Assembly: GCA_964019055.1 (NCBI GenBank) | Contig: OZ025215.1 | Span: forward strand, 3,435,001-3,499,000 | Origin: Anthopleura xanthogrammica | Lineage: Eukaryota; Cnidaria; Anthozoa; Actiniaria; Actiniidae | Direction of reading: 5' to 3' | Length of the DNA: 64,000 bases | Shown here: piece by piece, positions 13,143 through 63,913 of the stretch | Position numbering within the stretch: position 1 is the first letter of the stretch | Layout: each line of letters opens with the position of its first letter | Notes under the pieces: model-generated | Databases searched by the model: none | What the model was told of the DNA's origin: nothing | What the model saw: only the letters and a program-made list of their open reading frames with translations | Program-made: the position numbers and the translations under genes

Positions 13143-13360
13143 CGATCTGTGACTTAGCCGTGCCCTGACTTAGATCAGTCCAGAGGTTGTTTCAGGGTTC
13201 GATCTGTGACTTAGCCGTGCCCTAACTTAGATCAGTCAGAGGTTGTTTCAGGGTTCGATCAGTGAGTCAGTATGCACTGACATAGATCAGCCCAGAGGTT
13301 GTTTCAGGGTTCGATCAGTGAGTCAGCCGTGCCCTGACATAGATCAACCCAGAGGTTGTT
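13143..13360. repeat. 57-bp minisatellite, four units
   Basis: Units at 13143, 13200, 13256 and 13312, each CGATC(T/A)GTGA...TAGATCA...AGAGGTTGTT. Units 1-2 and 3-4 form two subtypes. Confidence 0.92.
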
Positions 13361-13974
13361 ACCGAACACGTCTGTCGTTCAGTAATGTATTTTAAATAAC
13401 AAATGAAGGCCATTATTATGATCAGGGTTGGATAAAATGGAAGGTTAAAGGACCAATTAAGAAAACTGATAACGTCGTAGTCACCTACCAAAATCAGAGT
13501 ACGCTTGAATAAATAATATTACGTAGAAACATGTTTAATGCTCATTGAACTTTATTAGTGCTTAACTCAGACTAATTTACTAAGATACAGATATAATTTC
13601 TAAATATTAGAGAAGTTAACTCCTTTTAGCCAAAAGCTCTATGAGAGCCAAGAAAATAGTGTCGTAACTTAACCATTAAATTCTTCTAAATATTTGATCA
13701 TCTAGGGTACTATACATTTGATAAATAAATTCATTTCATATAATTTTTGTCGTTGTCATTCTTGTCCGTTTACCATGGTGATATCTCTTGATCCACTAAG
13801 CATGCACGGATTCTTTTTCCTTTTCTTGTGTTTTGGGCTTGACAGGAGGTCTTCCCAAGATCATTCTCTTGAACTTGTAGATGTCTGGTTCCTTTTCCTA
13901 TAAAATCATTCAACATGCTTAGTAAATAAATGAATAGTTTTTCGTTTTAATTATATTTGCTACCTATCTTTTTC
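13361..13974. other. Spacer, nothing recognised
   Basis: No supported feature. Confidence 0.4.
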
Positions 13975-16589: not shown

Positions 16590-19500
16590 CTTGAGTTTGG
16601 AGTAAACTGTGGAAATTACGATTTAAAATCAATCGAAATATTTGATGTATATTGAAACAATATACAATAGACCTTTCCCGAATGCGCTTGAGTGACCACA
16701 AAACAATGGTTCCAAGTCGAGGTTGGACTTGATAAATACAGTAAATGTATGAAAAGATCAAGTCAAACCTCGGACTTAAACCATTGTTTCGTGGTTACTC
16801 AAGCGAATTCGGGAAATAACTATTATCTGAGTTTTGGTTTTGTGTTGTTCAGATAACCTACCTGGTCTTCTGGTGGGTCTTCTGGTGGGTCTTCTTGTAG
16901 GTCTGATTATGGAACCACCAACTTTAACAAATAATGATTAATTAATGTGTATACGCCATGTCCGAATTATACAAAAAACGGCCACAGGAATTCCAAAAGA
17001 CAACTAACAACACCAAAATTAAAAATCATTAAAGCAAAAACATGAGCACCAAACAAATATTTTGTCACTAAATGAGAATTTCTAGTTACTTTTAATTTTA
17101 GTAAGCTTACCTGGTCGTCGTCCCATTAATCCGAATCTCAGTGAGATATGCGCGTGCCATGTTTTTGGTATGATCCTGACGAAACGAGCTCGGATGACGG
17201 GGCGAAGGCTACGAGCCACTACGGTGTTTCTGTCACTATTTCCAAGGAATACCTGAAACAACCATTATTGAATATATTAAGCTGCATTTGGTTAAATTTG
17301 TATCATCAACCTTTGAACAATACTTTATTCTACCGAGCTTTTGAGGATACAAATCTAACCAAATGAACTTAAACCCAATCTACAAACATCTATTTGATTA
17401 TATTAAGCTTGTTTTTTCCCCACACCTTTTAACAAATACATTTCCTACAAATTTCCTACAAATCGATCTTTTTTGTGCCCTATGCACTTACCCTGACACG
17501 TCCACGGACTCTATATGTTATGAAGCGCCTTCCATTGTTGCTGTAAGCTACAGTGTATGTCTTGACCCACTGGTTCGTATCTTGACGACCTTGAGTAAGA
17601 ATCTTACTAATGATTGTCCTTTTTCCAATATCAACTTGAATCCATTGCCGTCTGTTGTTTTTCTTGGCAGACCATCCACCAACATTTCGTCCTCTTCTTA
17701 TGTTGTTAAGTCGGGCAAGATGAGGTCCATGGTTACGATTCCATTGAGATGATGCACTGAAGGCAGATTTAGGAATCTTGCCATCCTCGATACCAATTGG
17801 AACTTGGTTTGAAGCTGCAAGTAAAAAGTGGCATATATATAAATAAAATTTCTAGGAAATGTACTTCTTACTTAAAGGTATTGGACTACTTTGACGATAC
17901 TGCGGCCATCTTGGTAGGGGGCAAATATACAGAGCTTTATTACAATAATAGCGTCGATTAACATCCGTAATGTACCACAAGGCAATTTAACAGGGGATGA
18001 TTAAGAACTCAAGATGAACATGAAAGAAAGACAAATAAACAAAATTCTATATGTTAAGGGGGCTTTTATTCATTAGTGTATGGGGGAAAGGATCGGCAAA
18101 ACCATCTGTTGCCTTTTCCAAATATTACCCAAGCCCCAGTCCCAACCCCCCTTCCTCGTTGGCAAAAATACCATAACCCCCCTATATTTCGCCCAGTTTA
18201 TTACTAAACCCCTATAAAGCTTCCGAAAATAATGTGGCCCCCCAATATTGCCGACCCCCCATAAAGTAATAAATGAAAGCCCCCTAACCCGCGTCATCTT
18301 TGATTTGTTCCCCACCCCCCCCCCCCCCCTGGAAGCACCATAATAACTTGCGATTCAATATGGCCGCCGTATCGTCGAAATATTCCATTCGATTTGGCCG
18401 AGCAATGATTTGACACTCAAAATTTTTTTTTTTTCCACTTACATGCTCTGGTAACATAAAATTCAGCCCTTAGAGAAACATGTCCGCGCCATGTCCTGGG
18501 ATTGATTCTGACATAAGTAGCCGTAATTGGAGGATCGAAAACATTTTCCTTTAGGGAGTTGCGATCTCTGTTGCCACGGAAGACCTGGAAATATTAATGA
18601 AATAAAGACACGTAAGAAAAACTGGAAAAACCAGAGAAAGAAAGATCCGGCGTAGCAAATAAGAGATATAAAAAAAAGAATTAAAAAAAAAGAATTTAAA
18701 AAAAGAATTTAAAAAAATTTAAAAAAACAATAAAAGAAACAATAAAGAAAAAAAAATCAAAAACAAACAAACAAAAACATCCAAAAAAAGACAACAAACA
18801 AACAAACAAACAAAACACTTACCTTTGTTCTTCCTTTTGACGTGTATGTGGTCCATCGCCTTCCATCCTGACTGTATAGGATAACAAAGCTTGTCACCCA
18901 CTGGTTCGTATCGCTTCGTCCTTGAGTCACAACCTTGTAGATCTTCTTTGGTGATCTCAAGTTAAACTGAATCCATTGTCCCCTGTTATTTTTACGAGCT
19001 GACCATCCTCCAACTTGACGTCCACGTCGTTTACGATTGAGACGAGCAAGCCATGGGGCGTGGTTTCTGTCCCATTGGCTGGATGCTGTGATGTATCTGT
19101 TGGGTAGACGGCCATTGGAAATGCCACAAGGGACTGGTATAGGTACGCGACCTAGATAATTAAGAATAAATGTTTCATTAATAAAAAATATTTTTATTGG
19201 TCATACACAGTTTGTGTTTCTTAGAATAAAGAAGGTTCGTGGTCGAGTGCCTTGTTTAACGATACTCACCATATCTTCGACCATACAACTCGACTCTCAT
19301 AGACATGTGACTATGCCAGGATTGTGGGTAGATGCGAACGTAACGAGCCGTGAAGGATTTTCGGAACCTGTTGTACACTATGGAGTTCCTGTTCCTGTTG
19401 CCTCGTAAGACCTTTAAAAATCATGAGCATAGAAATAAACATTTTTGTAGCAAAAGAAAACGACTGAGTAGACTAGTTCGAGCTACTTCGGTGAATTACT

Positions 19501-22500
19501 AGCCATAAACAATGAATACAATATGAACTGCTCACTGTAAAAAGAAAGAAAAAGAAGGAAAGAAAATAAAAAAAAAAAAAAGAAAGGAAAGGAAAAGTAA
19601 AGAAAGGAAAAAAGGCTCGAATATAAACTACGAATAACTTTTTTATGACTACTTACCGCTCTTCTCCTGCCAACTCTGTATGTTGTAAACTTTGATCCAT
19701 CCCTACTATATGCCACGTAGTAGCTTGTCACCCATTGATTTGCATCTTGTCGTCCTTGGGTAGCAATACCGGTAACTCGGGCAAGGCTTCTGAGATCAAT
19801 CTGGAGCCACTGACCACGTCGATTGTGTCTAGAAGACCACGCCCCTGTTCTACGTCCTCGTCGAACAAAGTTGATTCTTGCATTTGATGCTCTGTGGTTG
19901 ACATTCCAAGAAGACGACGCTGATAAAGCGCTGTCTGGTATTCGCCGATCTTGCACACCAAGGGGTAAGTATCTTGGATCTTTTGAGCATAAAAAGGGAG
20001 GAAAATCAATAACTGAATAACTTGTGGATAAGTGAAACCTGTATTTATAACAGACATGTGCAAATATTAGTTCCATTAGTGAATTCTACGTACTTGCATT
20101 TCTTCCATACAACTCCAATCTCATTGAAATGTGGCGATGCCATCTGACTGGATGAACACGGACAGCTATTGCGTATATGGCAGGACTAAATCTGTTACGT
20201 TTGACGGAGTTGCGGTTGCGATTGGCATTAAACACCTGTTATTAGAAAACAGACCATTATTTCAATAATAAGTACGCATATATTTTATGAGAAAAGTGAA
20301 TTCTTGGATTCTTTTAAGATATCAGTAATGATTACTGAATAAATATTAAATAAAATTTAAGTTTCAATAATTCGGCACGGTTGCAAGCAAGCATAACAAA
20401 ACTCGAATCGCAAAATTTGATAATCGTTCCATCGGTCCGTTAGCTCAGTCGGCAGAGCGTGGTGCTAATAACGCTAAGGTCATGGGTTCGAGCCCCATAC
20501 GGACCACGATGTATCTTTACTTTTTTAAACACAAACAAAAAAATATCCCTCAAACAGACCAAAAACAGAGATAAACTCACAAAAAGTGATAATTTCATTC
20601 GGGGAAAAAGTCTAGTATTCATAGCCTTCTCATGGCGTAAACCTCTTTTAAAACTTAAAATCGAAGACAAATTGATCAATTGAGCAGAATACTGATACTG
20701 ATACGTTAAAGTGGCACTTGGATGAAAAAGCCCCATATTTTGAAAGTCAGAATAGTTCAAGTATATAAAAATAATATGACTCAATCATGATTATGAAAAC
20801 CAGATTGGCAAACATTTTAGCCTGGGAGCCACTCGCAGTTGAGAAATTTTGGTTTAAAAACTAAAAGAACAATAGGGTTGAGTAAATGACGTCATTTACT
20901 CACAATTTAGATGCTGAAAAAAATATATAATTCTATCCGCAAATTTTGACTGTGAAGAAAATATGTTGCTTGGCTACTATTGGGGCCATATAGATAAGTT
21001 TAACCAAGTTTCAAGGCATTTCCAATTTTCATCGATTTTCATCCAAGTGCCCCTTTAAGCGACTAGATTAAATACTAGATTAAATACTAAATATAGAACT
21101 AATTAAAAATTACTACTTACAACTGTGCGTGATGCTCTGGAAAATCGAACAAAATGCACACCATCCATACTATACGTAATGAAGTATTTTTTCACCCATT
21201 GGTCAGCGTTCTGGCGACCCTGTGTTGCTATAGCAACGATTTTCTTTGGACTTCTGAACGTAACCTATAAAGAATGTGTAAGGGTAAGATTTTTAAAGGT
21301 TAGGAATCATATAGCAGTTGATTTGACAATTTGATTCGAATGGCAAATGCCACCTGGCTCGGTCACGGTACTGAAATGATGGTATATCCCTTGAACCAAG
21401 TGCTTAGTGCATGCCTAGAGTAAACGGTGCTCATCCAATGAAAATGCTGAAACACGGTTACTTCACGATCACTCAAGCCCACACCATGAAATGCTTGTAT
21501 AGCCAAAATTCAACAATGTTCGGCTAATAACAATCTTGAAATCCACACATTAGACTAGTTTAACCAACTCAATGAACTTGACCACCAAAAGTAAAATTCA
21601 ATAAAAGAAAAAAACTTTGTCTTAACAGACCAATAAACGGTCGTACCTGTAAGTATTGATTTCGGTTGTTATGTCTTGCAGACCAACCACCTTGATATCT
21701 TCCTCGTGCACGTCTGTTTAGTCTGCCCAAGAAGGCACCATGGTGATGGTTCCAGTTTGAGGATGCACGGATCTGGTTGTTACGGATACGACCGCTCTGC
21801 ATACCGAGAGCCTTGGCTCCACGATTGGGTGGAGGCCGAATTGTTCCACCTACAAAAAATCAAATAATAGCTTTATAATAGTGTTTTTTGTTAAAACAAT
21901 CGCGTACTTTTCTTGTTTACATACCTGATCGTCTTCCTCGGAATCCAATTCTCATAGAGATGTGTGACTGCCAGGTTCGTGGAAGGATTCGGATATAACG
22001 TGCTCGAATGTAAGGCCTCAAGCCACGAACAGCAACAGTGTTTCTGTCTGAGTTACCCAAGAACACCTGAAACCATTGTAGCGTGTGAATTTTATGATGA
22101 ATTTTAACACGAATTTTAAGATCAATGTCTTGAAAAATTTTTTTGTAGATGTGTAAGTCGACGCTATCCAGTCTTGCAAACACAATCGTATTGCGTTCAT
22201 TTACTACTATCTTGATAATAAACTTACCCTAACACGTCCACGGAATCTGTATGTTCTGAAGTGCCTTCCATTGTTGCTGTACGACACAGTGTATGTCTTG
22301 ACCCACTGGTTTGTGTCTTGACGACCCTGGGTAAGAATCTTACTAACGATGGTTGGTTTTCCGAAGTCAACTTGGATCCATTGTCGTCTATCATTCTTTC
22401 TAGCGGACCATGCTCCAGTCTTTCTTCCACGCCGAACAGTGTTGAGTCGAGCCCGTGACGGTCCATGGTTTCGGTCCCATTTCGAGGAAACTCGGATAGC

Positions 22501-55500: not shown

Positions 55501-58500
55501 TGAAGAAATACAGACTCTTGTTGACAATAAGGACTCAGAAAACACCAAAAAAGCTACGAAAAACGCTATCGCAACCCTAGTAGCATTTTCTGATGAAACT
55601 GGTCATGAAAATCCCGAAAGATTAGCAAAACAAGAACTTGACGATCTGTCCGCAATCACCTGTACTGATGCAGAATTTTGCTTCCCAAAGTCAAGAAACA
55701 GTGACTTTTCAAGCAGGGGCTTTTTCAGGTGCAAATGTGACCCTTAATTTCTACTCGAAGTGAGTTTTAAAGAAACATTGAACTATTCAAAAATCTTATA
55801 TATTCATTGAACTTTGATTTTTTGATCTTTTGAATCGTGTATCCGTTTAGTAACGGTCTTATGTTATGTTGCAAGCTCACGGAATAAAAATTCAAATTTT
55901 CTAAATTGACTTGTCTAAAATGATTAGCTATATAACAAAACGCTTAATGACTGATCCCTCGGGACCAGTCATTAAGTGTATATAATAATTATAATAATAA
56001 TTATATCAATAATAATAATAATAATCAAAAGTAAAAATGACGTGAACTTTCTAGAAGCAAAAAACCTATTGTTTAATGACTGAAATTTAAACTTACTTTG
56101 ATTGAAGCCATAAACCTCAGCCCTCAGTGAAATATGTCGATACCAAGTCCATGGGTAGATACGAACAAAGCGTGCGATGATTGGAGGGTTAAACAAGTTC
56201 TGTTTAACTGTGTTTCGATCTCTGTTTCCAGGAAGAACCTTCATGTAACGAGAAAAATATATTTCAAATTGTCGAGTGAAATTGTAGTTGTTCAATATTG
56301 CATAGCATCGTCAGTGCAAAAAGGTAACGTCAAGACTTCCGAATTTCATCAATTCAAATTAACAACAGTTCCATACCTTAACCACACTGTTCACTTTGTA
56401 AGATACCCAGCGTCGTCCGTCCAAACTGTACTTAACAATGTAACTCTTTACAAACTGGTTGTTGTGGCTACGTCCTTGGGTGGCAATCTTGTAGATCTTT
56501 TTAAACCTTCTCAAGTCAAACTGAATCCATTCTCCACGTCTGTTTCTCCTGGCAGACCATCCGCCCATGTACCTGCCTCTTCGCTTGAGCTTTAGACGAG
56601 CGAGCCATGGAGCATGGTATTTGTCCCATTGGCTTGATGCTCTGATGTATCTGTTCGGTAAACGCTTGTTTGAAATACCACATGGGAGGGGAAGGCGGGT
56701 TCGAACTAAAAAAATAATAATTTCTTTTTAGTGACAAGGTAAATAAGCAAGTAAATGTAGAAAATTGTTTGTGTAAGACAGGACAAACTATAAAAAACTG
56801 CCATTTGCATATATAGTAATCAAAGCAGTGGAGCCTCAATTGTGTTGGGAATGAAAAAAAAATGACGTACTGTATCTTCGACCATAGACTTCCACTCTCA
56901 TTGCAATGCCACTACGCCAGGATTGTGGGTAGAAACGAACATAGCGAGCAGAGAAGGGTCGTAGACGGTGGAAAACCACGGAAGTCCTGTCTTTGTTGCC
57001 ACGGAAACTCTGAAAAATTACGAAATTTACTATTATTGTACACAAACATCTCAATATTTTCCCCTTTAAACTTTACAGATGCTTTTATATAGTATCCTAA
57101 GGTGAAGAATAGTTAAGCTCTCTCGTTTACAATTGTCTACGAAACTTCTCCAACAAAACTGTAGAAGCCTATGTTTCATTTTAAAGGTCATGTGGTAAAA
57201 ATTACGAAAAGAATATAAAGTAATCTAAAAAGACTTAAAGTAAAAGGATTAACGAGGCTTCCTACACTTTAGCTTCATTTCAATCATATATCCTTTTATT
57301 CAAAGTAGACTTACATAGATACTTCTGCCAGCTCCGTAGAACGGGAATCTTCGCCCATCTTTGCTGTACCTCAGTCGGTATCTCGTCACCCATTGACTAT
57401 AGTCTTGTCGTCCCTGGGTAGCAACACCAGTCACACGAGCCAAGCTTCCGATATCAATTTGCAGCCACTGACCATATTTGCTAGGTCTAGGACACCACGC
57501 CCCTGCTTGTCCTCGTCGATATAAGTTGAGCCTGGCGTTTGCTGGTCTGTGTTTATGGTCCCACATGGACGAGGCACTCAAAGCTGAGTCAGCAATACGG
57601 CCATCTTCAACTCCAAGAGGTAGATATCTGATAGCTGGAAAAATGATATAAATTTCTAATTCAGTTTCTATTAAACGATAGAATTATAGGGCAGACTTGC
57701 TGCGATTTTCAATATTCTGCGAACTCGGTAGTTGAGAGTTGCCTGTTGGTATTTGTTTTTTCACTGCCACCAGTCAAAAATATAAGATGTACCGACTGAT
57801 TAGTTATGATTGACGGCAGGGAAAAACCAATTTCTCAACAAGCGGTTGAAATGTCTGAGTTCTTAGAATATTGAGAATCCCAGTAAGTTTTAAAAAAAGC
57901 CGGTTGCTATTCATTATTGGCAGAACTGATATCAATATTTTATTTATCCATAGACACCATTAAATGTCCATGGGATTGGTATTGTTCAACTTCCCCAGTC
58001 TTTACGCTACAGTTATTTGATTTGCAAAAGTCAACTGTAATGTAAAGAATATGGAAGTTAAAATATGCCGATGTTTTCAAATGACAAGCTGTCTTATAAA
58101 CAAGGCTAAGCCTGTGCAAATGAATCCGTGCTCTTCAAAAATAGTGGTTTGCATCGAATGCGAAACTGGCGTATTAAGACATACCTGCGTTTCGTCCGTA
58201 CAGTTCAAGTCTCATGGAAATATGACTTTTCCAGCTGAATGGGAGAATACGAATGCTTTTTGCTTTGATGTTTGGTCTCAGAACGTGTCGAACTATTCCA
58301 TTGCGGTTCTTGTTTCCACGGAATATCTGTGTTTGAAAAAAGAAAGAAAGAATAAATGAATGCATAAATCAAAGATGGATGGATGGATGGATGGATGGAA
58401 TATAGAAAGGACGGAAGGAAGGAAGAAATGAATGAATGGTAGAACGAATAAAAAGTAATTATATGAAGTACAAAGCATCTCGACACGTTTACACCAAATT

Positions 58501-61500
58501 TAACAATAGCTGTCGGGTTTAAAAGGTCAAATCATCCAAGCTAAGACCGAGGAGTATTTTGGGTAGCTTCGTGATATCCTGGGCATTTGGAAAGTCTTTA
58601 CATATACACACATGCGCGAAGAGTGAGAAAATGCTTTGTTTGGTAAAGCCTGGTTTCAATAAGTCGGCGACATCCCTGCCACCGCAGGTACTGCCTGGGA
58701 CGACATTCCGATGCGGGAATTGTAATACCGATACGGCGTAAAGCGCATAAAATTGTATTATATCTCGATCAGTTATGCCGGCTGAAAATATCGCAGATAG
58801 ATCGCCAATTATGCTCCTATATTCCTTGTACGTTGTTAATAGAGGTTTTGCACCATCACGTGACGACATAAGAAGGAATTCAATTTCCGAGAGGAAAGGC
58901 ATTTTATTGTTTTGCCATCTAACCACAGGCAGCCCAAGCTGTATTATGGCCGCCAACACGTGATGGCGCAAAACATCTATTACATAAGTAAATTAAATTA
59001 GAATTTTTGGAATATGATGTTAAATAGTAGGATCCGCCTTATGTCCCATCCCTAAGCAGCATAGCTAAATATTTACCTTTCTTTGACCACGTAACCTATA
59101 CGGCATGTAGTGCAAGTTATCCAAACTATAGGTTATGTAGTAGCGAGTGACCCATTGGTTTGCGTTCTGGCGACCTTGCGTAGCAACGGCCGTTACTTTT
59201 TTAGGGCGACGGAAAGTTACCTTAAATAAAAAAAAGTGGAAAAACCATGTCACATGAAAATTCACATATGAAGGAATGAGTATATACAAGTCTCTTACGG
59301 CATGAGATTAGAAAACTAAAAATATCTTTTTTACCTGTATGTACTGGTTACGGTTGTTATGTCTTGCTGACCAACCACCTTGATATCTTCCTCTTGCACG
59401 TCTGTTTAGTCTGCCCAAGAAGGCACCGTGGTTTCTGTCCCAGTTTGAGGATGCACGGATCTGGTTGTTACGAATACGACCGCTCTGCATTCCAAGGGCA
59501 CGGAATCGGCGTGGAGGTCTTATTTTTCCTGCTATAAATCAATTTATATTATTATCATTATGATAATGCAAGAGTTAATTTGAACTAAATATGATTCAAA
59601 GGTTCAAATTTTATCGTGCCCTGAAACAACTTTTGGGCTGATCAAAAACGCATGTCCGTAATGTCGCGTCCAGGAATCAAACTCAAGACCGGAGGCGTGT
59701 GCACTATCGCTACGTCACCCTTGATCGTCACATGCGGCAAACAAAGTTAGCCTTGTTGTCACAACTGGTAAGTAAGTGATATTCCTTCAAAGTACTTCCA
59801 GTGCATTAAAAAAAAAGATGCATTCTTTTGAAAAGAATAGACATTTTTAGCTTCGTATGTACATTGCCTATTCCAGACCACATGACCTGATTCCCTTAAG
59901 AAATGTTCTTTTGTTAAAATATTTACAGATGAAAGAATTAACTCCCAAGAGTAGCATCACATGGTCTGAAACAGGCACAACAAACAACAAAGCTCAATAA
60001 AAACGTCTATTTCGTGGTATACAGTAAGAAAATGTAGCGGAATATAAATAAATCTACAGTTGTAGTTTAATTCTTTTTTTCGTAACTTTCCACTTCCACC
60101 GAACACTTACGTTTTCGTCTTCCAAGTAATTCCATTCTCAGTGACATGTGTCCTTGATAGGTTCTTGGATAGATTCTGATGTAACGTGCTCGAATTGCTG
60201 GTCTCAGTCGACGAGTTACAATACTGTTTCTGTTACTATTTCCCAAGAAAACCTGTAAAGAATCAGAAACAATAAATTAATTATTAACATTATCGTTATT
60301 ATGTTTATTAGCAGCATTACTGCACACGGCAGTAAAAATCACAAATCAAAAAAATTATCTATTGTATTAGGTTTATTATTTTCGTCATCAAAGGTTTGGA
60401 CAAAGTATAAGCAAATTCCGTCGAAGTATGAGATTCATTCTTCTCTTTGTAAGGGTATTGTTTAGAATAGGAACTTCCTTTATTCTTCTTCTCTATTTCA
60501 TGTTATCTCTTTTCTTGCTCTTGTTTTACTTAATTCTTTTGTATACTTAAACTTCATTCTTATTATTTACCCTGACTCGTCTACGGACTCTGTATGTTTT
60601 GAAGTGCCTTCCATTGTTGCTGTAAGCCACAGTGTATGCCTTGACCCACTGGTTCGTATCTTGACGACCTTGAGTACGAATGCCTGTGATAGTTGTGTAT
60701 GCTCCTAAAGCAACCTGAATCCATTGTCCTCGGTTGTTTTTCCTGGTAGACCATCCGCCAACCTTTCTTCCTCGTCTGACGTTGTTAAGACGAGCAAGAT
60801 ATGGTGCATGGTTACCATCCCATTGTGAGGAAGCTCTAATGGAATAGTTGGGAATCGTGCGATCTTCCATACCAAGTGGGATTTTATTATTTCCTTAAAT
60901 AAAAGAATAATTAATAAGCATTTTGAGCGTTAAGCGTGGTTCGTACAAAAGTAAAAAAATATATATAATTTATTGACTCCACTCCTTGCCTTGAATTCTA
61001 TGGGAGCCTGAGAGCCGTTATAAAAACAGGTTACCTTGTTTTAAAAAACACTTTAGAGAACCGACGTTTTTAAGCAAAACCGCTAAATTACAACAGAAGA
61101 CATGCTTGAAATTCGAGAGCGCAAAACACTTTAATTTTGAGGTGAATTCGTAATTTCCTTCAACATTCCTGAATAATACGTCTTTTGTTTTTGCGCCTTT
61201 TATTTAGTAAAGCTTGTCTCAAACGGTTTAATTTTCTATAAGCATTATAACTATCACTGTACAACGTAATCGTGTCTGAAATAGCTGTCTACTGGGGCAA
61301 ACTTACGTTGGTTGAAACCATAAATCTCAGCTCTCAGCGAGATATGTCTATACCAAGTCCATGGGTAGATTCGAACAAAACGTGCGATGATCGGAGGGTT
61401 AAATAAGTTCACTTTCACTGTGTTTCTATTTCTGTTACCAGGAAGTACCTTTAATACAAAAATAGGAAAGATTGAGAATATTGTTTATTAATGATTTACT

Positions 61501-63913
61501 AAAACGATCGGAGGCTAAAAGGATTTCCCTTTCGCCTAATTTTGACCCTGTTGTAAATTGTAAATTTATATGTTTTTGAAGCCGGAAATGGTAATAAAAT
61601 TAGTACTGTTGTTGTTGTTATTAAGAACTATAAATATATCGGTAACTTCTGGTGAGGTCATCCAAGTAATATTCAGCGCTTTCCATACGTCAGCTCACTG
61701 GTCTAACACAAAGCATTCAACAGAGGCTGAAAGGTTCAAATTTTAATCCTGTACCTTGAAACCTCGATTTAATGATTGTGTGTGACAACTGATGCCATGT
61801 ATGTATCGAAGGAGGTGAATAGTAGGGAAGGTAGCGACTTTATTTTAAGAGGGTGACACGTGACATTAACAAAAATCACTGACAAACTAGTGGATCTCAA
61901 AGGTCATCCTCATATTGATCAAATCTAAGAGTTCTTCGAAGAAATTGAAATCAGATTTTCGATCATCTGGGTAAAATCACGTGTCTATTGTTACAAGAAC
62001 CAAACGAAGCCACACAAAAACAAAAAAACAATAGTTCAAGGATGCAATTGGTTAAGGTAGGGTTAATTGTGTTCTTAAAAGTGGCTTTATTTATTACTGA
62101 AGTTTGATAAGAAATACCTTGACCACGCTGTTCTTTTTGTAGGACACCCAGCGTCGTCCGTCCAAACTGTACTTAACAATGTAACTCTTTACGAATTGGT
62201 TGTTGTGGCTACGACCTTGGGTGGCAATCTTGTAGATCTTTTTAAACCTTCTCAAGTCAAACTGAATCCATTCTCCACGTCTGTTTCTCCTGGCAGACCA
62301 TCCACCCATGTACCTGCCTCTTCGCTTGAGATGTAGACGAGCGAGCCATGGGGCATGGTATTTGTCCCATTGACTTGATGCTCTGATGTATCTGTTCGGT
62401 AGACGCTTGTTTGAGATACCACATGCAGCAGGCACGCGAGTTGGAGCTTTATCAAACACAAATCAAATTATTATGTCAACTGTAGAATAAAACGAAAGAA
62501 TATTTTATTTCTATATTTTAGTATAACTCACTGTATCGGCGACCGTACAGTTCCACTCTCATCGCGATACCACCACGCCAAGATTGTGGGTAGAAACGAA
62601 CATATCGAGCAGAGAAGGGTCGTAGACGGTGGAAAACCACGGAAGTCCTGTCTTTGTTGCCACGTAAACTCTGTAATAAATCATGCCGTTAAACATTTAG
62701 TTAAAAATTCCTTCAATTATTATCTACAGGTTTGAGTATAAAAAGAAAACAAAAATAAACTTACATAGATTCTTCTGCCAATTCCGTAGAACGGGAATCT
62801 TCGTCCGTCTCTGCTGTATCTCAGTCGGTATTTCCTCACCCACTGATTATAGTCTTGTCGTCCCTGGGTAGCAACACCAGTCACGAGGGCCAGTTTTCCA
62901 ATATCAATTTGTAGCCACTGACCATATTTACTAGGTCTAGGACACCACGCCCCTGCTTGTCCTCGTCGATATAAGTTGAGCCGGGCGTTTGCTGGTCTGT
63001 GTTTATGGTCCCACATGGAGGAGGCACTTAAAGCTGAGTCAGGAATACGCCCATCTTGAACTCCAAGGGCTCTGTTTCCTGAAATGTATCACAGTTTATC
63101 GCATTAATAGGTAATGATGTCTTCTATAAGTTTAAGATTTGGTCTTTTCACTCTTAAACATTGTTTTTTTACTGCGATCATTTTATTTTCTATTGTTGGT
63201 GCATAGTAGTTGGAGGTTGAGATCAACGACTTCTAACATACCAGCGTTTCGTCCATACAGCTCAAGTCTCATGGAAATATGACCTTTCCAGCGATAAGGG
63301 TGAACACGGATGCTTCTTGCTTTGATGTTTGGCCTCAGAACGTGTCGAACTATTCCATTGCGGTTCTTGTTTCCACGGAATATCTATGTTGCAAGAATTA
63401 AAGCAAATTGAATTAAAAATTTGGTAGCTGGCTTTAAGGCGTGCCCTGTACAACCCTCTGGGTCTTCAAAAAATCGAGGAGAAGGTGCTGCCTTAGTGTT
63501 CGAACCCTCTTTTTGTAAACTTTTCAAAACTAATTCCAAAAAACGTTTGCGCCCTTTTCTGAGACATTAAAAATATCTGTTGAACTACCCAAATTGGAGG
63601 AATAACGCAGATTGCTGAAACATTTCAAACAATGTAATGTGCATAGATAAAGTAATATTTTTGTAAAAGCAAAATATTTAGACAAGTCGTAACCCAATAC
63701 TTGTTCTCCAGGCATGCAAATTGATTGGACACAACCTATATATAAACCAAGTATAAGTTTTCTATGTACCATATTGCGACCACGTGATTTGTATCGGATA
63801 AAGTGTACGTTGTCCAAGCTGTATGTAATGTAGTAACTCGTGACCCATTGGTTGGCGTTCTGGCGACCTTGTGTTGCTATGGCTGTAACTTTTTTAGGAC
63901 GACGGAAATTCAC
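15293..63913 (-). CDS. Giant F5/8 type C (discoidin) repeat protein with C-terminal vWA domain, 5' incomplete
   Basis: Ninety-three coding exons can be placed by hand with GT-AG borders and consistent phase, from the partial domain R40 at the right edge down to a TAA stop at 15293-15295. They encode 40 tandem F5/8C domains of about 155 residues, a 14-residue acidic linker and one vWA domain, roughly 6,400 residues in this window. Each domain carries the discoidin core TQGRxDxNQWV and an ending like SHISMRLELYG. Domain-to-domain introns are phase 1 and introns within domains are phase 0, so each domain is a symmetric module. The start codon and any signal peptide lie beyond 64000. F5/8C and vWA domains are typical of secreted or surface adhesion and matrix proteins; no transmembrane segment is seen at the C-terminus. 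Function in adhesion, mucus, skeleton matrix or recognition is inference. The array could in principle be split into several transcripts, but I saw no internal stop, start signal or frame break that would require it. Confidence 0.85.
16674..16816. mobile_element. MITE, about 60-bp arms, in the vWA intron
   Basis: Arms 16674-16733 and 16757-16816 are complementary with few mismatches (TTTCCCGAATGCGCTTGAGT). Confidence 0.8.
16862..16902 (-). CDS. 41-nt microexon encoding an acidic Pro/Glu/Asp linker
   Basis: Good acceptor (cataatcag) and donor (gtaggtt) flank 41 nt that translate, in phase with R1 upstream, to DLQEDPPEDPPEDQ. It contains a 12-nt tandem repeat (Pro-Pro-Glu-Asp). It separates the basic F5/8C array from the vWA domain and is the only strongly acidic stretch seen in the protein. 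The following exon at 16411-16589 fits phase 0. Confidence 0.65.
17111..17814 (-). CDS. F5/8C domain R1 (last domain; mixed X4/Y4 class)
   Basis: Exons 17492-17814 (323 nt) and 17111-17252 (142 nt). Starts VPIGIEDGKIP, has NHGPHLARLNN, the core TQGRQDTNQWV and the end GLMGRRPG. It mixes X4 features (LARLNN, VGGWS) with Y4 features (ISKILTQGR). It is the C-terminal edge of the array and clearly diverged from inner copies. Confidence 0.85.
18050..18330. repeat. C-rich low-complexity stretch in intron
   Basis: A strand-asymmetric run rich in C tracts ends in a poly-C run at about 18311-18329. The minus-strand ORF over it is compositional. Confidence 0.6.
18443..19151 (-). CDS. F5/8C domain R2 (class Y3)
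   Basis: Exons 18823-19151 (329 nt) and 18443-18584 (142 nt). Start motif PCGISNGRLPNRY keeps the Cys that other Y3 domains replace by Ser, so it looks closer to the common ancestor of X3 and Y3. Core VTQGRSDTNQWV. The intron at 18585-18822 is A-rich low complexity with an AAAC run. Confidence 0.85.
19270..19979 (-). CDS. F5/8C domain R3 (class Y2, diverged)
   Basis: Exons 19657-19979 (323 nt) and 19270-19411 (142 nt). Motifs YLPLGVQDRRIPDSAL, RRGRRTGAWSSRHN, ATQGRQDANQWV and VLRGNRNRNSIV. It has SALSASS where inner Y2 domains have RAFSSSS. The acceptor at 19980 is set by the reading frame, since a nearer AG would break it. Confidence 0.85.
20094..21849 (-). CDS. F5/8C domain R4 (class Y1, three exons)
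   Basis: Exons 21647-21849 (203 nt), 21121-21264 (144 nt) and 20094-20235 (142 nt). Class-1 start ALGMQSGRIRNNQIRASS; core ATQGRQNADQWV; end HISMRLELYGRNA. The third exon begins FNANRNRNS, as in Y1. Its 885-nt second intron holds a tRNA-Ile gene on the opposite strand. Confidence 0.87.
20434..20506 (+). tRNA. tRNA-Ile (anticodon AAT)
   Basis: A 73-nt cloverleaf: acceptor stem GGTCCGT with ACGGACC, D arm GCTC/GAGC, anticodon loop CTAATAA, T arm ATGGG/CCCAT with loop TTCGAGC, and discriminator A. Only wobble pairs weaken the anticodon stem. Intact A and B boxes suggest it can be transcribed. It lies in an intron of the giant gene, antisense to it. Confidence 0.93.
21925..22550 (-). CDS. F5/8C domain R5 (class Y4)
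   Basis: Exons 22228-22550 (323 nt) and 21925-22066 (142 nt). Motifs ALPLGVEDGKIPSLAIR, GPSRARLNTVRRG, SKILTQGRQDTNQWV, and VFLGNSDRNTVAVRGLRP in the second exon. Only 75 nt separate it from R4. Confidence 0.88.
22864..23408 (-). CDS. F5/8C domain R6 (class Y3)
   Basis: Exons 23080-23408 (329 nt) and 22864-23005 (142 nt), parted by a 74-nt intron. Start FPSGISNGRLPNRYI, where Ser replaces the X3 Cys; core VTQGRSDANQWV; second exon VFPGNRDRNSLKEN. Confidence 0.88.
23500..24118 (-). CDS. F5/8C domain R7 (class Y2)
   Basis: Exons 23796-24118 (323 nt) and 23500-23641 (142 nt). Motifs LPLGIEDRRIPERAFSSSS, RRGRRTGAWSSRHN, ARVTGIATQGRQDANQWV, second exon IFRGNRNRNSIV. Antisense ORFs over this exon are shadows of its arginine-rich coding. 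Confidence 0.88.
24477..25377 (-). CDS. F5/8C domain R8 (class Y1, three exons)
   Basis: Exons 25181-25377 (197 nt), 24955-25098 (144 nt) and 24477-24618 (142 nt). Start FRALGMQSGRIRNNQ; core AVATQGRQNANQWVTRYY; third exon IFAANRNRNTVVRRRIRP, the Y1 mark. First member of the regular inner array after the diverged tail R1-R4. Confidence 0.88.
25463..25600. mobile_element. 138-bp MITE
   Basis: TATAGACCCCTT and GGAGGGCAAAACAA pair with TTGTTTTGCCCTCC and AAGGGGTCTATA on the right. Confidence 0.8.
25697..26407 (-). CDS. F5/8C domain R9 (class X4)
   Basis: Exons 26085-26407 (323 nt) and 25697-25838 (142 nt). Motifs LGLEDGKIPNYAIRASS, NHAPYLARLNNVRRG, GIRTQGRQDTNQWV; second exon VFLANSDRNTVVTRQLRP. 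The 815-nt intron to R10 (26408-27222) shows nothing recognisable. Confidence 0.88.
27223..27956 (-). CDS. F5/8C domain R10 (class X3)
   Basis: Exons 27628-27956 (329 nt) and 27223-27364 (142 nt). Start PCGISNKRLPNRYI with the X3 Cys; RRGRYMGGWSARRN; core ATQGRSHANQFV, where Gln-Trp becomes Gln-Phe; second exon VLPGNRDRNTVK. The intron just upstream is nearly identical at its 3' end to that of R18, marking a recent duplication. Confidence 0.88.
28341..28559. mobile_element. 219-bp MITE with CAGCGCGA ends
   Basis: CAGCGCGACGCGCAAAGGTA at the left is complementary to the right end with two mismatches; inner CATACTTCTATGCAC also pairs. Confidence 0.75.
28618..29168 (-). CDS. F5/8C domain R11 (class X2)
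   Basis: Exons 28849-29168 (320 nt) and 28618-28756 (139 nt). Motifs SLPLGVQDGRIPDSALSASS, NLYRRGQAGAWCPRPSKYG, ATQGRQDYSQWV. The second exon has one codon fewer than the 142-nt norm. Confidence 0.88.
29734..31259 (-). CDS. F5/8C domain R12 (class X1, three exons)
   Basis: Exons 31069-31259 (191 nt), 30597-30740 (144 nt) and 29734-29875 (142 nt). Start ALGMQSGRIRNNQ; core AVATQGRQNANQWV; third exon VFRGNKNRNGIVRHILRP, the X1 mark. The second intron (29876-30596) contains a perfect inverted-repeat MITE. Confidence 0.87.
30367..30559. mobile_element. MITE with perfect 49-bp terminal inverted repeats
   Basis: 30367-30415 and 30511-30559 are exactly complementary (starts CATTATAAATTTTGCTACTA). 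The 95-bp core has no ORF. Confidence 0.88.
31373..31974 (-). CDS. F5/8C domain R13 (class Y4)
   Basis: Exons 31652-31974 (323 nt) and 31373-31514 (142 nt). Motifs YVLPLGIEDKKIPSRAIR, GPSRARLNTVRQG, SKILTQGRQDTNQWV; second exon VFLGNTDRNTIAARFLKP. Confidence 0.88.
32123..32958 (-). CDS. F5/8C domain R14 (class Y3)
   Basis: Exons 32630-32958 (329 nt) and 32123-32264 (142 nt). Start IFPSGISNGRLPNKYI; core VTQGRSDTNQWV; second exon VFPGNRDRNSLKENCF has an unusual Cys. The 861-nt intron upstream (32959-33819) shows nothing recognisable. Confidence 0.88.
33820..34565 (-). CDS. F5/8C domain R15 (class Y2)
   Basis: Exons 34243-34565 (323 nt) and 33820-33961 (142 nt). Motifs RLPLGVEDRRIPDRAFSSSS, RTGAWSSRHNRHG, ATQGRQDANQWV; second exon IFPANRNRNFIVYNRF. 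Confidence 0.88.
34654..36136 (-). CDS. F5/8C domain R16 (class Y1, three exons)
   Basis: Exons 35940-36136 (197 nt), 35147-35290 (144 nt) and 34654-34795 (142 nt). Start KALGMQSGRIRNNQIRASS; core AVATQGRQNANQWVTSYY; third exon IFNANRNRNTVIRRKIRP. The first intron carries a composite inverted-repeat element at 35527-35835. Confidence 0.87.
35527..35835. mobile_element. Composite inverted-repeat element, copy 2
   Basis: Block with ACAATTATTGGATGAGG to CAATAATTG, then a spacer matching the reverse of 8990-9010, then a perfect hairpin of 32-bp arms (35767-35833, CTCGACATGATAAATGTATT). Related to 8869-9142. Confidence 0.75.
36495..37294 (-). CDS. F5/8C domain R17 (class X4)
   Basis: Exons 36972-37294 (323 nt) and 36495-36636 (142 nt). 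Motifs LGLEDGKIPNYAIKASS, NHAPYLARLNNVRRG, AIRTQGRQDTNQWV; second exon VFQGNSDRNTVVTRRLRP. Confidence 0.88.
37474..38453 (-). CDS. F5/8C domain R18 (class X3)
   Basis: Exons 38125-38453 (329 nt) and 37474-37615 (142 nt). Start PCGISNKRLPNRYI; core ATQGRSHTNQFV; second exon VLPGNRDHKSVKQNVF. The intron between the exons holds a 189-bp inverted-repeat element. Very close to R10 in exons and in part of the flanking intron. Confidence 0.88.
37866..38054. mobile_element. 189-bp MITE, long hairpin
   Basis: TACACCTACTTGCA, GTCATACAACATTTGA and AGGAATAAATTAAAAGTACA each pair with complements in mirror order. Few mismatches, so a young insertion. Confidence 0.85.
38587..39415 (-). CDS. F5/8C domain R19 (class X2)
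   Basis: Exons 39096-39415 (320 nt) and 38587-38728 (142 nt). Motifs LGVEDGRIRDSALSASS, RRGQAGAWCPRPSKYG, VATQGRQDISQWV; second exon SFRGNKDKTSVVFHRL. Confidence 0.88.
39523..40243 (-). CDS. F5/8C domain R20 (class X1, three exons)
   Basis: Exons 40056-40243 (188 nt), 39785-39928 (144 nt) and 39523-39664 (142 nt). Start ALGMQSGRIRNNQ; core ATQGRQNANQWV preceded by an unusual Ser (AVASQGRQ is read here); third exon VFRGNRNRNGIVRHVLKP. Confidence 0.87.
40312..40852 (-). CDS. F5/8C domain R21 (class Y4)
   Basis: Exons 40530-40852 (323 nt) and 40312-40453 (142 nt), intron only 76 nt. Motifs YVLPLGIEDGRIRSKAIR, GPSRARLNTVRRG, SKILTQGRQDTNQWV; second exon VFLGNRDRNTVMIRHLRP. Confidence 0.88.
41184..41730 (-). 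CDS. F5/8C domain R22 (class Y3)
   Basis: Exons 41396-41730 (335 nt) and 41184-41325 (142 nt). Start IFPSGISNGRLPNKYI; core VTQGRSDANQWV. The acceptor is a tandem NAGNAG (TAGCAG), so the exon may also end at 41727; both choices keep frame and change one Ala. Confidence 0.87.
41790..42203. mobile_element. 414-bp element with 18-bp perfect TIR
   Basis: TACCTTATTATAGGAAAT at 41790 is complementary to 42186-42203, and the next bases (CAACGAAATTAA) also largely pair. No ORF. Confidence 0.7.
42384..43078 (-). CDS. F5/8C domain R23 (class Y2)
   Basis: Exons 42756-43078 (323 nt) and 42384-42525 (142 nt). Motifs RLPLGVQDRRIPDRAFSSSS, RTGAWSSRHNKHG, ATQGRQDANQWV; second exon IFRANRNRNSIVYNRF. Confidence 0.88.
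43160..44164 (-). CDS. F5/8C domain R24 (class Y1, three exons)
   Basis: Exons 43968-44164 (197 nt), 43696-43839 (144 nt) and 43160-43301 (142 nt). Start ALGMQNGRIRNNQIRASS; core AVATQGRQNANQWV; third exon IFAANRNRNSVVLRRLRP. Confidence 0.88.
44481..45406 (-). CDS. F5/8C domain R25 (class X4)
   Basis: Exons 45084-45406 (323 nt) and 44481-44622 (142 nt). Motifs IPLGLQDGTIPNYAIRASS, NHAPYLARLNNVRRG, GIRTQGRQDTNQWV; second exon VFLANSDRNTVVTRQLRP, identical over this stretch to R9. The intron has a tandem duplication at 44668-44799. Confidence 0.88.
44668..44799. repeat. Tandem duplication, about 87-bp period
   Basis: CAGTATTGATTGTACATGAG...TTCATYTGAGTGTTG occurs twice, 87 bp apart. Confidence 0.85.
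45583..46199 (-). CDS. F5/8C domain R26 (class X3)
   Basis: Exons 45871-46199 (329 nt) and 45583-45724 (142 nt). Start SCGISNKRLPNRYI; core ATQGRSHTNQFV; second exon VLPGNRDQKSVKENLLEP. The 697-nt intron upstream (46200-46896) shows only a short motif shared with two other introns. Confidence 0.88.
46897..48071 (-). CDS. F5/8C domain R27 (class X2)
   Basis: Exons 47752-48071 (320 nt) and 46897-47038 (142 nt). Motifs SLPLGVEDGRIPDSALSASS, RRGQAGAWCPRPSRYG, ATQGRQDHSQWV; second exon SFRGNRNRNSVVYHRL. The internal intron carries a tRNA-derived SINE. Confidence 0.88.
47275..47495 (+). mobile_element. tRNA-derived SINE
   Basis: The head has an A-box-like GTAGCGGTGAGAGCG and a B-box-like ATTCGAGTTC, followed by a body (TCGGTTTCGTATGTGAGTA, TTTTCAGGTTCTCCTCCCTC) shared with 54955-55085. 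Short, intronic, non-coding. Confidence 0.65.
48429..49112 (-). CDS. F5/8C domain R28 (class X1, three exons)
   Basis: Exons 48925-49112 (188 nt), 48704-48847 (144 nt) and 48429-48570 (142 nt); compact, with 77- and 133-nt introns. Start ALGMQNGRIRNNQ; core AVATQGRQNANQWV; third exon IFRGNKNRNGIVRHILKP. Confidence 0.88.
49189..49786 (-). CDS. F5/8C domain R29 (class Y4)
   Basis: Exons 49464-49786 (323 nt) and 49189-49330 (142 nt). Motifs ELPMGVEDGLIPSRNIR, GPSNARLNTVRRG, SKILTQGRQDANQWV; second exon VFPANSDRNTVVIRRLRP. Confidence 0.88.
49935..50609 (-). CDS. F5/8C domain R30 (class Y3)
   Basis: Exons 50281-50609 (329 nt) and 49935-50076 (142 nt). Start IFPSGISNGRLPNRYI; core VTQGRSDANQWV; second exon VFPANRDRNSLKENYF. 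The first exon has no longer ORF by itself in a six-frame search because an in-frame stop follows its acceptor side, but borders and frame are clear. Confidence 0.86.
50898..50967 (+). other. tRNA-like sequence, probably pseudo-tRNA or SINE head
   Basis: A box TAGCTCAGTGGTAGAGC and B box GGTTCGATTCC are excellent, and the D and T arms fold, but the anticodon and acceptor stems do not pair. It may still recruit Pol III. Confidence 0.55.
51132..51748 (-). CDS. F5/8C domain R31 (class Y2)
   Basis: Exons 51426-51748 (323 nt) and 51132-51273 (142 nt). Motifs RLPLGVQDRRIPDRAFSSSS, RTGAWSSRHNRHG, ATQGRQDANQWV; second exon starts TFRANRNRNSIVYNRF, Thr replacing the usual Val or Ile. Confidence 0.88.
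52073..53208 (-). CDS. F5/8C domain R32 (class Y1, three exons)
   Basis: Exons 53015-53208 (194 nt), 52500-52643 (144 nt) and 52073-52214 (142 nt). Start ALGMQNGRIRNNQIRASS; core AVATQGRQNANQWV; third exon IFKANRNRNSVVLRRLRP. The first intron holds a MITE at 52744-52931. Confidence 0.88.
52744..52931. mobile_element. 188-bp MITE with inner palindrome
   Basis: TTAGTAAAAACCTACTAAT pairs with ATTAGTAGGTTTTTTCTAA; an inner hairpin GCTACTAG...CTAGTAGC spans about 52840-52878. Confidence 0.7.
53305..53605. repeat. Dispersed repeat, copy 2
   Basis: Same family and orientation as 11325-11632, with small deletions. Confidence 0.75.
53836..54725 (-). CDS. F5/8C domain R33 (class X4)
   Basis: Exons 54403-54725 (323 nt) and 53836-53983 (148 nt; two codons longer than usual at the 3' end, coding extra Arg/Lys-rich residues). 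Motifs IPLGMEDRTIPNYAIRASS, NHAPYLARINNVRRG, GIRTQGRQDTNQWV. The 1.37 kb intron upstream carries a SINE tail, AT microsatellites and a Crypton-like element. Confidence 0.87.
54947..55090 (+). mobile_element. 5'-truncated SINE copy
   Basis: Matches the body and tail of the SINE at 47275 from CTCGG on, including CCGGTTTTTCCTCCCTCCTT, but lacks the tRNA head. Confidence 0.6.
55145..55227. repeat. AAT/ATT microsatellite, self-complementary
   Basis: AAT runs alternate with ATT runs, forming hairpin-capable AT repeats next to the element at 55228. Confidence 0.85.
55228..55936 (+). mobile_element. 709-bp element with 20-bp perfect TIR and Crypton-like ORF
   Basis: GTTATATAGCTAATCATTTT at 55228 is exactly complementary to 55917-55936. 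It encloses the ORF at 55274-55747. A further hairpin (CTTAATGACTG...CAGTCATTAAG) lies just outside at 55944-55977. Confidence 0.65.
55274..55747 (+). CDS. Crypton/KIAA1958-like N-terminal fragment
   Basis: 157 codons from ATG 55274. RFSSLSSEEIQTLVDNKDSE and NTKKATKNAIATLVAF match the N-terminal region I know from the KIAA1958/ZMYM/DUF3504 family, derived from Crypton tyrosine recombinases and abundant in corals. No catalytic recombinase part follows. It is antisense to the host gene, in the R33-R34 intron. Likely a decayed or non-autonomous remnant. Confidence 0.5.
   Translation: MIDAHVILVKSNCIPTGIQVPSARDQNVRNQWGDIMNQSETSMLLKVMSRSHAKIFPARVKMEPKTKKQRFSSLSSEEIQTLVDNKDSENTKKATKNAIATLVAFSDETGHENPERLAKQELDDLSAITCTDAEFCFPKSRNSDFSSRGFFRCKCDP
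56097..56705 (-). CDS. F5/8C domain R34 (class X3)
   Basis: Exons 56377-56705 (329 nt) and 56097-56238 (142 nt). Start LPCGISNKRLPNRYI; core ATQGRSHNNQFV; second exon VLPGNRDRNTVKQNLFNP. Confidence 0.88.
56871..57634 (-). CDS. F5/8C domain R35 (class X2)
   Basis: Exons 57315-57634 (320 nt) and 56871-57009 (139 nt, one codon short as in R11 and R39). Motifs LPLGVEDGRIADSALSASS, RRGQAGAWCPRPSKYG, VATQGRQDYSQWV; second exon SFRGNKDRTSVVFHRL. Confidence 0.88.
57706..57878. mobile_element. Imperfect inverted-repeat element
   Basis: TTTTCAATATTCTGCGAACTC pairs imperfectly with GAGTTCTTAGAATATTGAGAA. No ORF. Confidence 0.5.
58185..59528 (-). CDS. F5/8C domain R36 (class X1, three exons)
   Basis: Exons 59335-59528 (194 nt; a TAGCAG tandem acceptor also allows 59531), 59077-59220 (144 nt) and 58185-58326 (142 nt). 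Start ALGMQSGRIRNNQ; core AVATQGRQNANQWV; third exon IFRGNKNRNGIVRHVLRP. The 750-nt second intron contains an unrelated 150-codon ORF. Confidence 0.87.
58376..58400. repeat. GGAT microsatellite
   Basis: Six GGAT units, followed by GGAAG and GAAT runs. The hydrophobic minus-strand ORFs over it are artefacts. Confidence 0.85.
58519..58971 (-). CDS. Unrecognised 150-codon ORF inside an intron
   Basis: Open from ATG 58971 to a stop at 58519 on the same strand as the giant gene. It has normal amino-acid mix, no low complexity, and segments such as YKEYRSIIGDLSAIFSAG and DIIQFYALYAVSVLQF that look like folded helices, but no family is recognised. No splice sites tie it to the host gene. It could be a retrogene fragment, transposon gene piece or chance. 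Confidence 0.35.
   Translation of the reverse strand: MRHHVLAAIIQLGLPVVRWQNNKMPFLSEIEFLLMSSRDGAKPLLTTYKEYRSIIGDLSAIFSAGITDRDIIQFYALYAVSVLQFPHRNVVPGSTCGGRDVADLLKPGFTKQSIFSLFAHVCICKDFPNAQDITKLPKILLGLSLDDLTF
59650..59745 (-). mobile_element. tRNA-derived SINE head
   Basis: On the minus strand it reads a tRNA-like GACGTAGCGATAGTGCA, CGCCTCCGGTCTTGAG and TTTGATTCCTGG (degenerate B box), then GACGCGACATTACGGACATG. Fits a SINE. Confidence 0.5.
60111..60893 (-). CDS. F5/8C domain R37 (class X4)
   Basis: Exons 60571-60893 (323 nt) and 60111-60252 (142 nt). Motifs IPLGMEDRTIPNYSIRASS, NHAPYLARLNNVRRG, GIRTQGRQDTNQWV; second exon VFLGNSNRNSIVTRRLRP. Shares MEDRTIPNY with R33, fitting the adjacent X-X tetrads being a recent duplication. 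Confidence 0.88.
61307..62446 (-). CDS. F5/8C domain R38 (class X3)
   Basis: Exons 62118-62446 (329 nt) and 61307-61448 (142 nt). Start PAACGISNKRLPNRYI; core ATQGRSHNNQFV; second exon VLPGNRNRNTVKVNLFNP. The 669-nt internal intron shows nothing recognisable. Confidence 0.88.
62532..63078 (-). CDS. F5/8C domain R39 (class X2)
   Basis: Exons 62765-63078 (314 nt, two codons shorter at the start) and 62532-62670 (139 nt). Motifs ALGVQDGRIPDSALSASS, RRGQAGAWCPRPSKYG, VATQGRQDYNQWV; second exon SLRGNKDRTSVVFHRL. Confidence 0.88.
63242..63913 (-). CDS. F5/8C domain R40 (class X1), first exon outside the window
   Basis: Exons 63770-63913 (144 nt) and 63242-63383 (142 nt). Core AIATQGRQNANQWVTSYY; last exon IFRGNKNRNGIVRHVLRP. 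The first exon of this three-exon domain should lie right of 64000, so the gene continues past the window edge. Confidence 0.87.

What the first reader, a model, noticed from the sequence alone, without database searches (positions are those of the whole stretch)
17111..63913. Coding higher-order repeat: eight F5/8C classes in alternating tetrads
Forty discoidin domains are not a simple tandem. They fall in eight classes: X1 (RGNKNRNGIVRH), X2 (GAWCPRPS), X3 (CGISNKRLP), X4 (IPNYAIRASS), Y1 (ANRNRN), Y2 (RAFSSSS), Y3 (FPSGISNGRLP) and Y4 (RARLNTVRRG). They occur as X and Y tetrads, each about 3.5-5.7 kb. Alternation over R5-R36 gives an eight-domain period of roughly 8-11 kb. This means a 4-to-8 domain block is the duplicating unit. 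I know of no described protein with this order, but could not search.
Basis: partly seen in the sequence, partly recalled or inferred. Interest (0 to 1): 0.92.

Follow-up and report, generated by a model that had tools for sequence, protein, structure and literature searches.

The report
Giant adhesion-like protein repeating in eights
A gene, probably from a sea anemone, seems to encode a huge and strongly positively charged adhesion-like protein whose 66 similar domains follow a repeating pattern of eight, a rare case of a protein built from repeats of repeats; what it does is not yet tested.

Summary
The window's minus strand holds 40 F5/8C domains (89 exons, no stop). In the genome the same gene model runs on upstream to 66 domains (148 exons, 10,352 codons, no stop). 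Domains eight apart are 82% identical, four apart 68%, neighbours 46% (shuffled 53%, sd 1.7%). A tree needs 11 label changes for 12 classes, the minimum. X and Y tetrads alternate with one break (X X), start with half a Y tetrad and end in a third set, Z, followed by a TRRP linker and VWA exons.

A paralogue about 0.35 Mb away ends X-Y-Z, each once, with the same linker and VWA: the unamplified state. Its older 55 domains have their own period of eight on an odd/even dimer. Copies are old: 15 of 455 same-position intron pairs align, within-class dS 0.16-0.56, dN/dS 0.19-0.28. So this is neither an assembly artefact nor a recent block amplification.

The array is an extreme polycation (17% Arg, pI 12, net +1,936). 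I infer a secreted polyanion-binding matrix or adhesive protein; that is untested. Coding higher-order repeats are known (titin, NBPF): a new variant of a known kind.

The parts
60111..63913 (-). tetrad X (window domains 1-4; W27-W30 of 66); the first exon of domain 1 lies beyond the window end
53836..59528 (-). tetrad X (domains 5-8; W31-W34); together with the tetrad before it the only break in the alternation
49189..53208 (-). tetrad Y (domains 9-12; W35-W38)
44481..49112 (-). tetrad X (domains 13-16; W39-W42)
40312..44164 (-). tetrad Y (domains 17-20; W43-W46)
36495..40243 (-). tetrad X (domains 21-24; W47-W50)
31373..36136 (-). tetrad Y (domains 25-28; W51-W54)
25697..31259 (-). tetrad X (domains 29-32; W55-W58)
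21925..25377 (-). tetrad Y (domains 33-36; W59-W62); its third domain groups with the paralogue's Y3
17111..21849 (-). tetrad Z (domains 37-40; W63-W66), the terminal set, shared one-to-one with the paralogue
16854..16919 (-). linker exon core, GGSIIRP(TRRP)n; 12-bp tandem repeat in the DNA (core of the match, exon ends not fixed)
16410..16604 (-). VWA exon 1 (Pfam PF00092, E 1e-12; 98% identical to the paralogue); core of the match
15714..15986 (-). VWA exon 2 (Pfam PF00092, E 9.5e-6; 82% identical to the paralogue); core of the match
15350..15463 (-). further conserved exon (71% identical to the paralogue), probably the end of the VWA domain; no Pfam match of its own

Best explanation
The locus is one giant gene, probably of a sea anemone, for a protein of at least 66 F5/8C domains, a TRRP linker and a VWA domain. 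SHOWN by sequence: the array was built by nested duplication. An odd/even dimer became a tetrad, the tetrad became X, Y and Z, and in this gene the X-Y octad was multiplied to about eight copies while the paralogue kept one. SHOWN: the copies are old and under purifying selection. INFERRED: since introns have drifted apart, gene conversion now works exon by exon within a class, while X and Y exons are too different to convert each other except at the first exon of position 1; this keeps eight classes sharp. INFERRED: the protein is secreted and works as a multivalent polycation (about +28 per domain) that binds sulphated or otherwise anionic polymers in mucus, mesoglea or pedal glue, with the octad as the repeating contact unit and the single cysteine of each X2 domain as a cross-link point once per octad.
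For: Gene model: 66 domains, 148 exons, 10,352 codons, 0 stops. Period. Classes on a tree. Unamplified X-Y-Z paralogue with the same linker and VWA. Odd and even domains of the paralogue (38 and 37) split by one branch, SH-aLRT 97, shuffled mean 25.4 changes. Age and selection: within-class median dS 0.16-0.56, dN/dS 0.19-0.28; 15 of 455 same-position intron pairs with a blastn hit at E<1e-3. Exon-scale homogenisation: dS X1 A1 0.29 against A2 1.07; Y3 A 0.23 against B 1.00; X1-Y1 A1-part dS 0.35 while exon B is saturated; longer exons have lower dS, Spearman -0.49, p 0.038, 18 exon types. Charge: Arg 17.3%, pI 12.0, net +1,936 in 10,287 residues. Cysteine: X2 Cys in 8 of 8 here, 0 of 1 in the paralogue; X3 Cys in 5 of 8. 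Fold: neuropilin b1 is the best PDB relative, E 5e-42 and 1.4e-37; neuropilin-1 b1b2 binds heparin (PMC4089425, passages). A sea urchin glue protein, Nectin, has six tandem discoidin domains (PMC10057474, passages).
Against: No signal peptide exon was found in about 25 kb upstream: a strict scan gave none, a relaxed one a single weak candidate 22 kb away, so secretion is inferred from domains only and the 5' end is open. No RNA, protein or binding data. The exon-length link is weak (X4 B, 142 nt, has dS 0.16) and uneven synonymous constraint could mimic part of it. Distance matrices of positions disagree, so octad copies cannot be traced as blocks. The VWA metal site looks degenerate (DGSSG in place of DxSxS; motif recalled). 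The extra-intron pattern of the paralogue's older array is not 8-periodic (p 0.49).
Confidence: 0.55

Rival explanations
1. The period of eight has no function: it is the neutral trace of which block unequal crossing-over happened to copy, later kept by gene conversion and by selection on each domain's fold alone.
For: Nested doublings 2-4-8 are what repeated unequal crossing-over gives; dN/dS 0.19-0.28 needs only fold constraint; the odd/even dimer and the X-Y-Z tail of the paralogue show the steps; two-domain units also recur elsewhere in the genome (C19, 1,768-bp spacing).
Against: X and Y keep 24-30 fixed differences at positions 2-4 across seven or eight copies each; the older array shows a period of eight as well; X2's cysteine is fixed in 8 of 8.
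Confidence: 0.35
2. The array is an assembly artefact or a dead pseudogene.
For: Long tandem arrays are error-prone in assemblies; no expression data were seen.
Against: Copies differ: dS 0.16-0.56 and almost all introns unalignable, which collapse or false joining would not give; 10,352 codons without a stop; dN/dS well below 1.
Confidence: 0.02
3. The array is a splicing cassette: domains are symmetric phase-1 modules, and cells choose subsets to vary binding specificity.
For: In the model every inter-domain intron is phase 1 and every intron inside a domain is phase 0, so any whole domain can be skipped in frame.
Against: Symmetric phase-1 modules are usual for extracellular mosaic proteins (recalled); domains of one class are nearly interchangeable, which gives little variety; no RNA data.
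Confidence: 0.12
4. The polycation binds something other than an adhesive's glycans, for example the poly-gamma-glutamate of stinging capsules, a mineral surface or nucleic acid released in defence.
For: Net +28 per 150 residues would bind any polyanion.
Against: Nothing here points to one of these ligands in particular.
Confidence: 0.25

Closest known systems
Titin A-band super-repeats (PMC10665226, passages)
   Same: A multi-domain unit repeated in tandem (six copies of 7 domains, eleven of 11); domains at the same place in the unit resemble each other more than their neighbours; recursive duplication proposed.
   Different: Ig and FnIII domains in an intracellular muscle filament; here one domain type only (F5/8C), probably extracellular, strongly basic, with an unamplified paralogue 0.35 Mb away.
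NBPF / Olduvai 3mer higher-order repeats (PMC9584774, passages)
   Same: Coding higher-order repeat with two exons per monomer and distinct monomer types in fixed order.
   Different: 3mer with copies under 5% diverged; here an 8mer whose introns have lost similarity while the coding classes stay distinct.
Sea urchin Nectin (PMC10057474, passages)
   Same: Tandem F5/8C (discoidin) domains; a secreted adhesive protein.
   Different: Six domains, 984 residues, rich in Ser, Gly and Ala; here 66 domains, 17% Arg, no class alternation reported for Nectin in the passages seen.
Neuropilin b1/b2, coagulation factors V and VIII C1/C2, lactadherin (PDB matches)
   Same: The F5/8C fold at full domain length.
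   Different: One or two domains per protein in the matched chains, not long ordered arrays.

Membership tests
F5/8 type C (discoidin) domain, PF00754 | Match above Pfam's gathering score | tested here: met
   two window exons tested: E 1.1e-18 (68 bits) and 8.2e-17 (62 bits), cut-off 28.2
F5/8 type C (discoidin) domain, PF00754 | Full-length match to solved F5/8C domains | tested here: met
   two whole domains tested: neuropilin-2, E 5e-42; neuropilin-1, E 1.4e-37
F5/8 type C (discoidin) domain, PF00754 | Cysteine pair joining the two ends (common, not defining) | tested here: not met
   20 Cys in 66 domains, none of the domains with two
Coding higher-order repeat (titin or NBPF kind) | Unit of several domains in tandem with position-specific similarity | tested here: met
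Coding higher-order repeat (titin or NBPF kind) | Unit copies closely similar over their whole length, introns included (as in NBPF) | tested here: not met
   15 of 455 same-position intron pairs with a hit
Coding higher-order repeat (titin or NBPF kind) | A partner structure with the same period (as the thick filament for titin) | not testable with these tools
   no ligand known
Nectin-like secreted adhesive | Six or more tandem F5/8C domains | tested here: met
   66
Nectin-like secreted adhesive | Signal peptide | tested here: inconclusive
   5' end not found
Nectin-like secreted adhesive | Present in an adhesive secretion | not testable with these tools
   needs proteomics; not filed as a member
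VWA domain, PF00092 | Match above Pfam's gathering score | tested here: met
   two exons: 49.1 and 26.4 bits, cut-off 23.8; the third exon has no match

The most novel reading that the evidence does not exclude
Eight F5/8C domains form a physical unit, such as one turn of a superhelix or one period of a matrix ligand, and selection for it has produced an eight-domain period twice: in the X-Y octads of this gene and, separately, in the older 55-domain part of the paralogue. Gene conversion gated by sequence identity then keeps the classes apart without conserved introns. The protein would be a repeating extracellular ruler or glue, with a cross-linking cysteine once per octad.
Probability: 0.25. 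Interest if true: 0.85.

Novelty: new variant of a known kind. Interest (0 to 1): 0.64.

Why it matters
Coding higher-order repeats are few, and the best known (titin) reads a filament period. Here a single domain type carries a three-level hierarchy (2, 4, 8) and a paralogue in the same genome still shows the state before amplification, so the order of events can be read directly. It also offers a natural test of how classes of repeats stay distinct inside one array once introns have diverged. If the protein is a glue or matrix polymer, its regular spacing, extreme positive charge and one cysteine per octad make a concrete design to test.

Tried and rejected
Assembly artefact and pseudogene: rejected by divergent introns, dS and intact frame. 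Simple recent block duplication: not supported. Congruent octad phylogenies: not found. Inheritance of the extra intron as independent evidence for octads in the older array: tested, not periodic (p 0.49 at separation 8). Tetrad level in the older array beyond the dimer: not significant (p 0.076), although separation 8 given tetrad phase is (p 0.0005). Register between the older octads and X or Y: none seen. Signal peptide: strict scan none, relaxed scan one weak candidate; a comparison of the two genes' upstream regions gave only short matches with stops. Homologues in other species: could not be searched. Viral, phage, plasmid and GTDB collections were not searched, as an animal gene is not expected there. 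Taxon by rRNA or cox1: no answer. GFP exon: first sent on the wrong strand, then on the right one.

Limits of the counts: trees carry warnings (bootstrap not settled, long branches meet; quick search without bootstrap). Older-array domains are tblastn matches, not full exon models. Genome searches scored only 150 candidates each (150 of 888, 150 of 315).

Full report
WHAT IS THERE. A tblastn scan with five exon-sized seeds found the F5/8C exons on the minus strand of the window, so the gene reads from high to low coordinates; a second scan found the second-half exons. Each domain is exon A (about 323 nt) plus exon B (about 142 nt); at position 1 of each tetrad exon A is split into A1 and A2. 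In the model introns between domains are phase 1 and those inside domains phase 0. The window part has 89 exons, 40 domains, 6,211 codons and no stop. Two exons tested pass Pfam's F5/8C cut-off; two whole domains match neuropilin b1 in the PDB at E 5e-42 and 1.4e-37.

THE WHOLE GENE. The window is C10:3,435,001-3,499,000 of a 289.8-Mb, 125-contig genome. Reading on, the array starts at C10:3,533,546 with Y3-Y4 and has 66 domains: half Y, then X Y X Y X Y X, X, Y X Y X Y X Y, Z. That is 148 exons and 10,352 codons without a stop. No further F5/8C match better than E 0.026 lies in the next 25 kb. Downstream come a TRRP linker and VWA exons, 71-98% identical to those of the paralogue. The 5' end of the gene is not found.

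THE PARALOGUE. On the plus strand about 0.35 Mb away, 75 domains (D01-D75, tblastn-level for the older ones) run from C10:2,977,386 to 3,097,251. They end in one X, one Y and one Z tetrad (12 domains, 27 exons, no stop), then the linker and VWA. D56-D63 match positions 1 to 4 roughly in order. D01-D55 are older: identity 0.387 at separation 1, 0.427 at 2, 0.445 at 4, 0.487 at 8, 0.466 at 16, 0.473 at 24. Permutation p is 0.0005 for 4, 8, 12, 16 and 24 and 0.007 for 2; for 8 given tetrad phase it is 0.0005; for 4 given dimer phase it is 0.076, not significant. On a tree of the 75, odd and even domains split by a single branch (SH-aLRT 97; shuffled mean 25.4 changes), and octad positions of D01-D55 need 17 changes (minimum 7; shuffled mean 39.3, 0 of 200 as low). 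The older octad positions show no preference for X over Y, and X-Y identity (0.59-0.76) exceeds the identity of matched older domains to this gene (about 0.49 at best by position), so the X/Y split looks younger than the split between the arrays. Whether D01-D75 is one gene is open: 10.5 kb separate D55 and D56, with no VWA match there at E 0.01.

AGE AND UPKEEP. Within-class median dS runs from 0.16 (X4) to 0.56 (Y1), dN/dS from 0.19 to 0.28; X against Y at one position dS 0.83-2.15; neighbours about 2.9. Same-position introns: 15 of 455 pairs have any blastn hit at E<1e-3; one recent patch (W14, W22, W42; up to 189 bp at 94%) stands out. dS differs between exons of one class (X1: A1 0.29, A2 1.07, B 0.31; Y3: A 0.23, B 1.00) and tends to fall with exon length (Spearman -0.49, p 0.038, 18 exon types), with exceptions such as X4 B (0.16). 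Distances between six full octads are not congruent across positions (mean Spearman 0.07), and dS does not rise with separation (rho 0.10, p 0.15, 210 pairs). I read this as old block duplication followed by exon-scale conversion within classes; uneven synonymous constraint is not excluded.

COMPOSITION. The 66 domains have 17.3% Arg, 4.8% Lys, 3.3% Asp plus Glu, pI 12.0, 1.22 MDa and net +1,936 over 10,287 residues. The paralogue's X-Y-Z part has 15.6% Arg; its older part 11.6% Arg and 1.13 Cys per 150 residues against 0.29 here. X2 carries one Cys in 8 of 8 copies, absent from the paralogue's X2; X3 carries one in 5 of 8. The VWA metal motif reads DGSSG (sequence; canonical DxSxS recalled).

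LITERATURE. Ten searches of open-licence PMC papers; the term F5/8 cannot be searched as written. Passages, not whole texts, were seen of PMC10665226 (titin), PMC9584774 (NBPF), PMC10057474 (Nectin), PMC4089425 (neuropilin and heparin), PMC12549020 (Nematostella matrisome; FA58C in Polydom only in the passages shown) and PMC6626399 (Exaiptasia pedal disc; one discoidin-like gene raised); PMC5080974 (Hydra) held none of discoidin, FA58C, von Willebrand. No listing or passage seen describes an ordered F5/8C array of this kind; subscription journals are not covered.

VERDICT. The structure is certain, its origin by nested duplication well supported, exon-scale homogenisation likely, function inferred. 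The kind (coding super-repeat) is known; a 2-4-8 hierarchy of one extracellular, strongly basic domain with its unamplified paralogue alongside is, as far as I could search, new.

Noticed in passing
[not shown]
   Followed up: no
window 3849-4241 (+): Open frame with MDTDSAYIA, which I recall as a family-B DNA polymerase motif of large DNA transposons; no Pfam match.
   Followed up: partly
window 55250-55747 (+): 165-codon open frame in the long intron between exon B of X3 (W33) and exon A of X4 (W34); looks like a mobile-element remnant, no Pfam match above cut-off.
   Followed up: partly
window 13143-13384: 56-bp tandem repeat, about four copies, downstream of the VWA exons.
   Followed up: no
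genome C10:2,903,559 and C10:2,943,297: Two more VWA exon-1 relatives (56% identical), 39.7 kb apart, the second preceded by a single F5/8C domain at 2,942,082: further members of the same gene family.
   Followed up: partly
genome C19:2,611,299-2,616,992: F5/8C matches spaced exactly 1,768 bp apart in two interleaved series with near-equal scores: a recent tandem of two-domain units, the dimer step caught young.
   Followed up: no
genome C4:16.25-16.34 Mb and C13:2.92-3.05 Mb: Long tandem arrays of VWA exons, some at equal spacing of about 2.79 kb (C4) and 1.76 kb (C13).
   Followed up: no
genome C10:3,336,000-3,402,000 (-): Another F5/8C cluster just downstream of the window gene, many with the whole domain in one exon; not fetched.
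   Followed up: no
L010 and window 44164-44481: Introns before Y1 of W14, W22 and W42 share up to 189 bp at 94% while nearly all other introns share nothing: a recent conversion or copy event.
   Followed up: no
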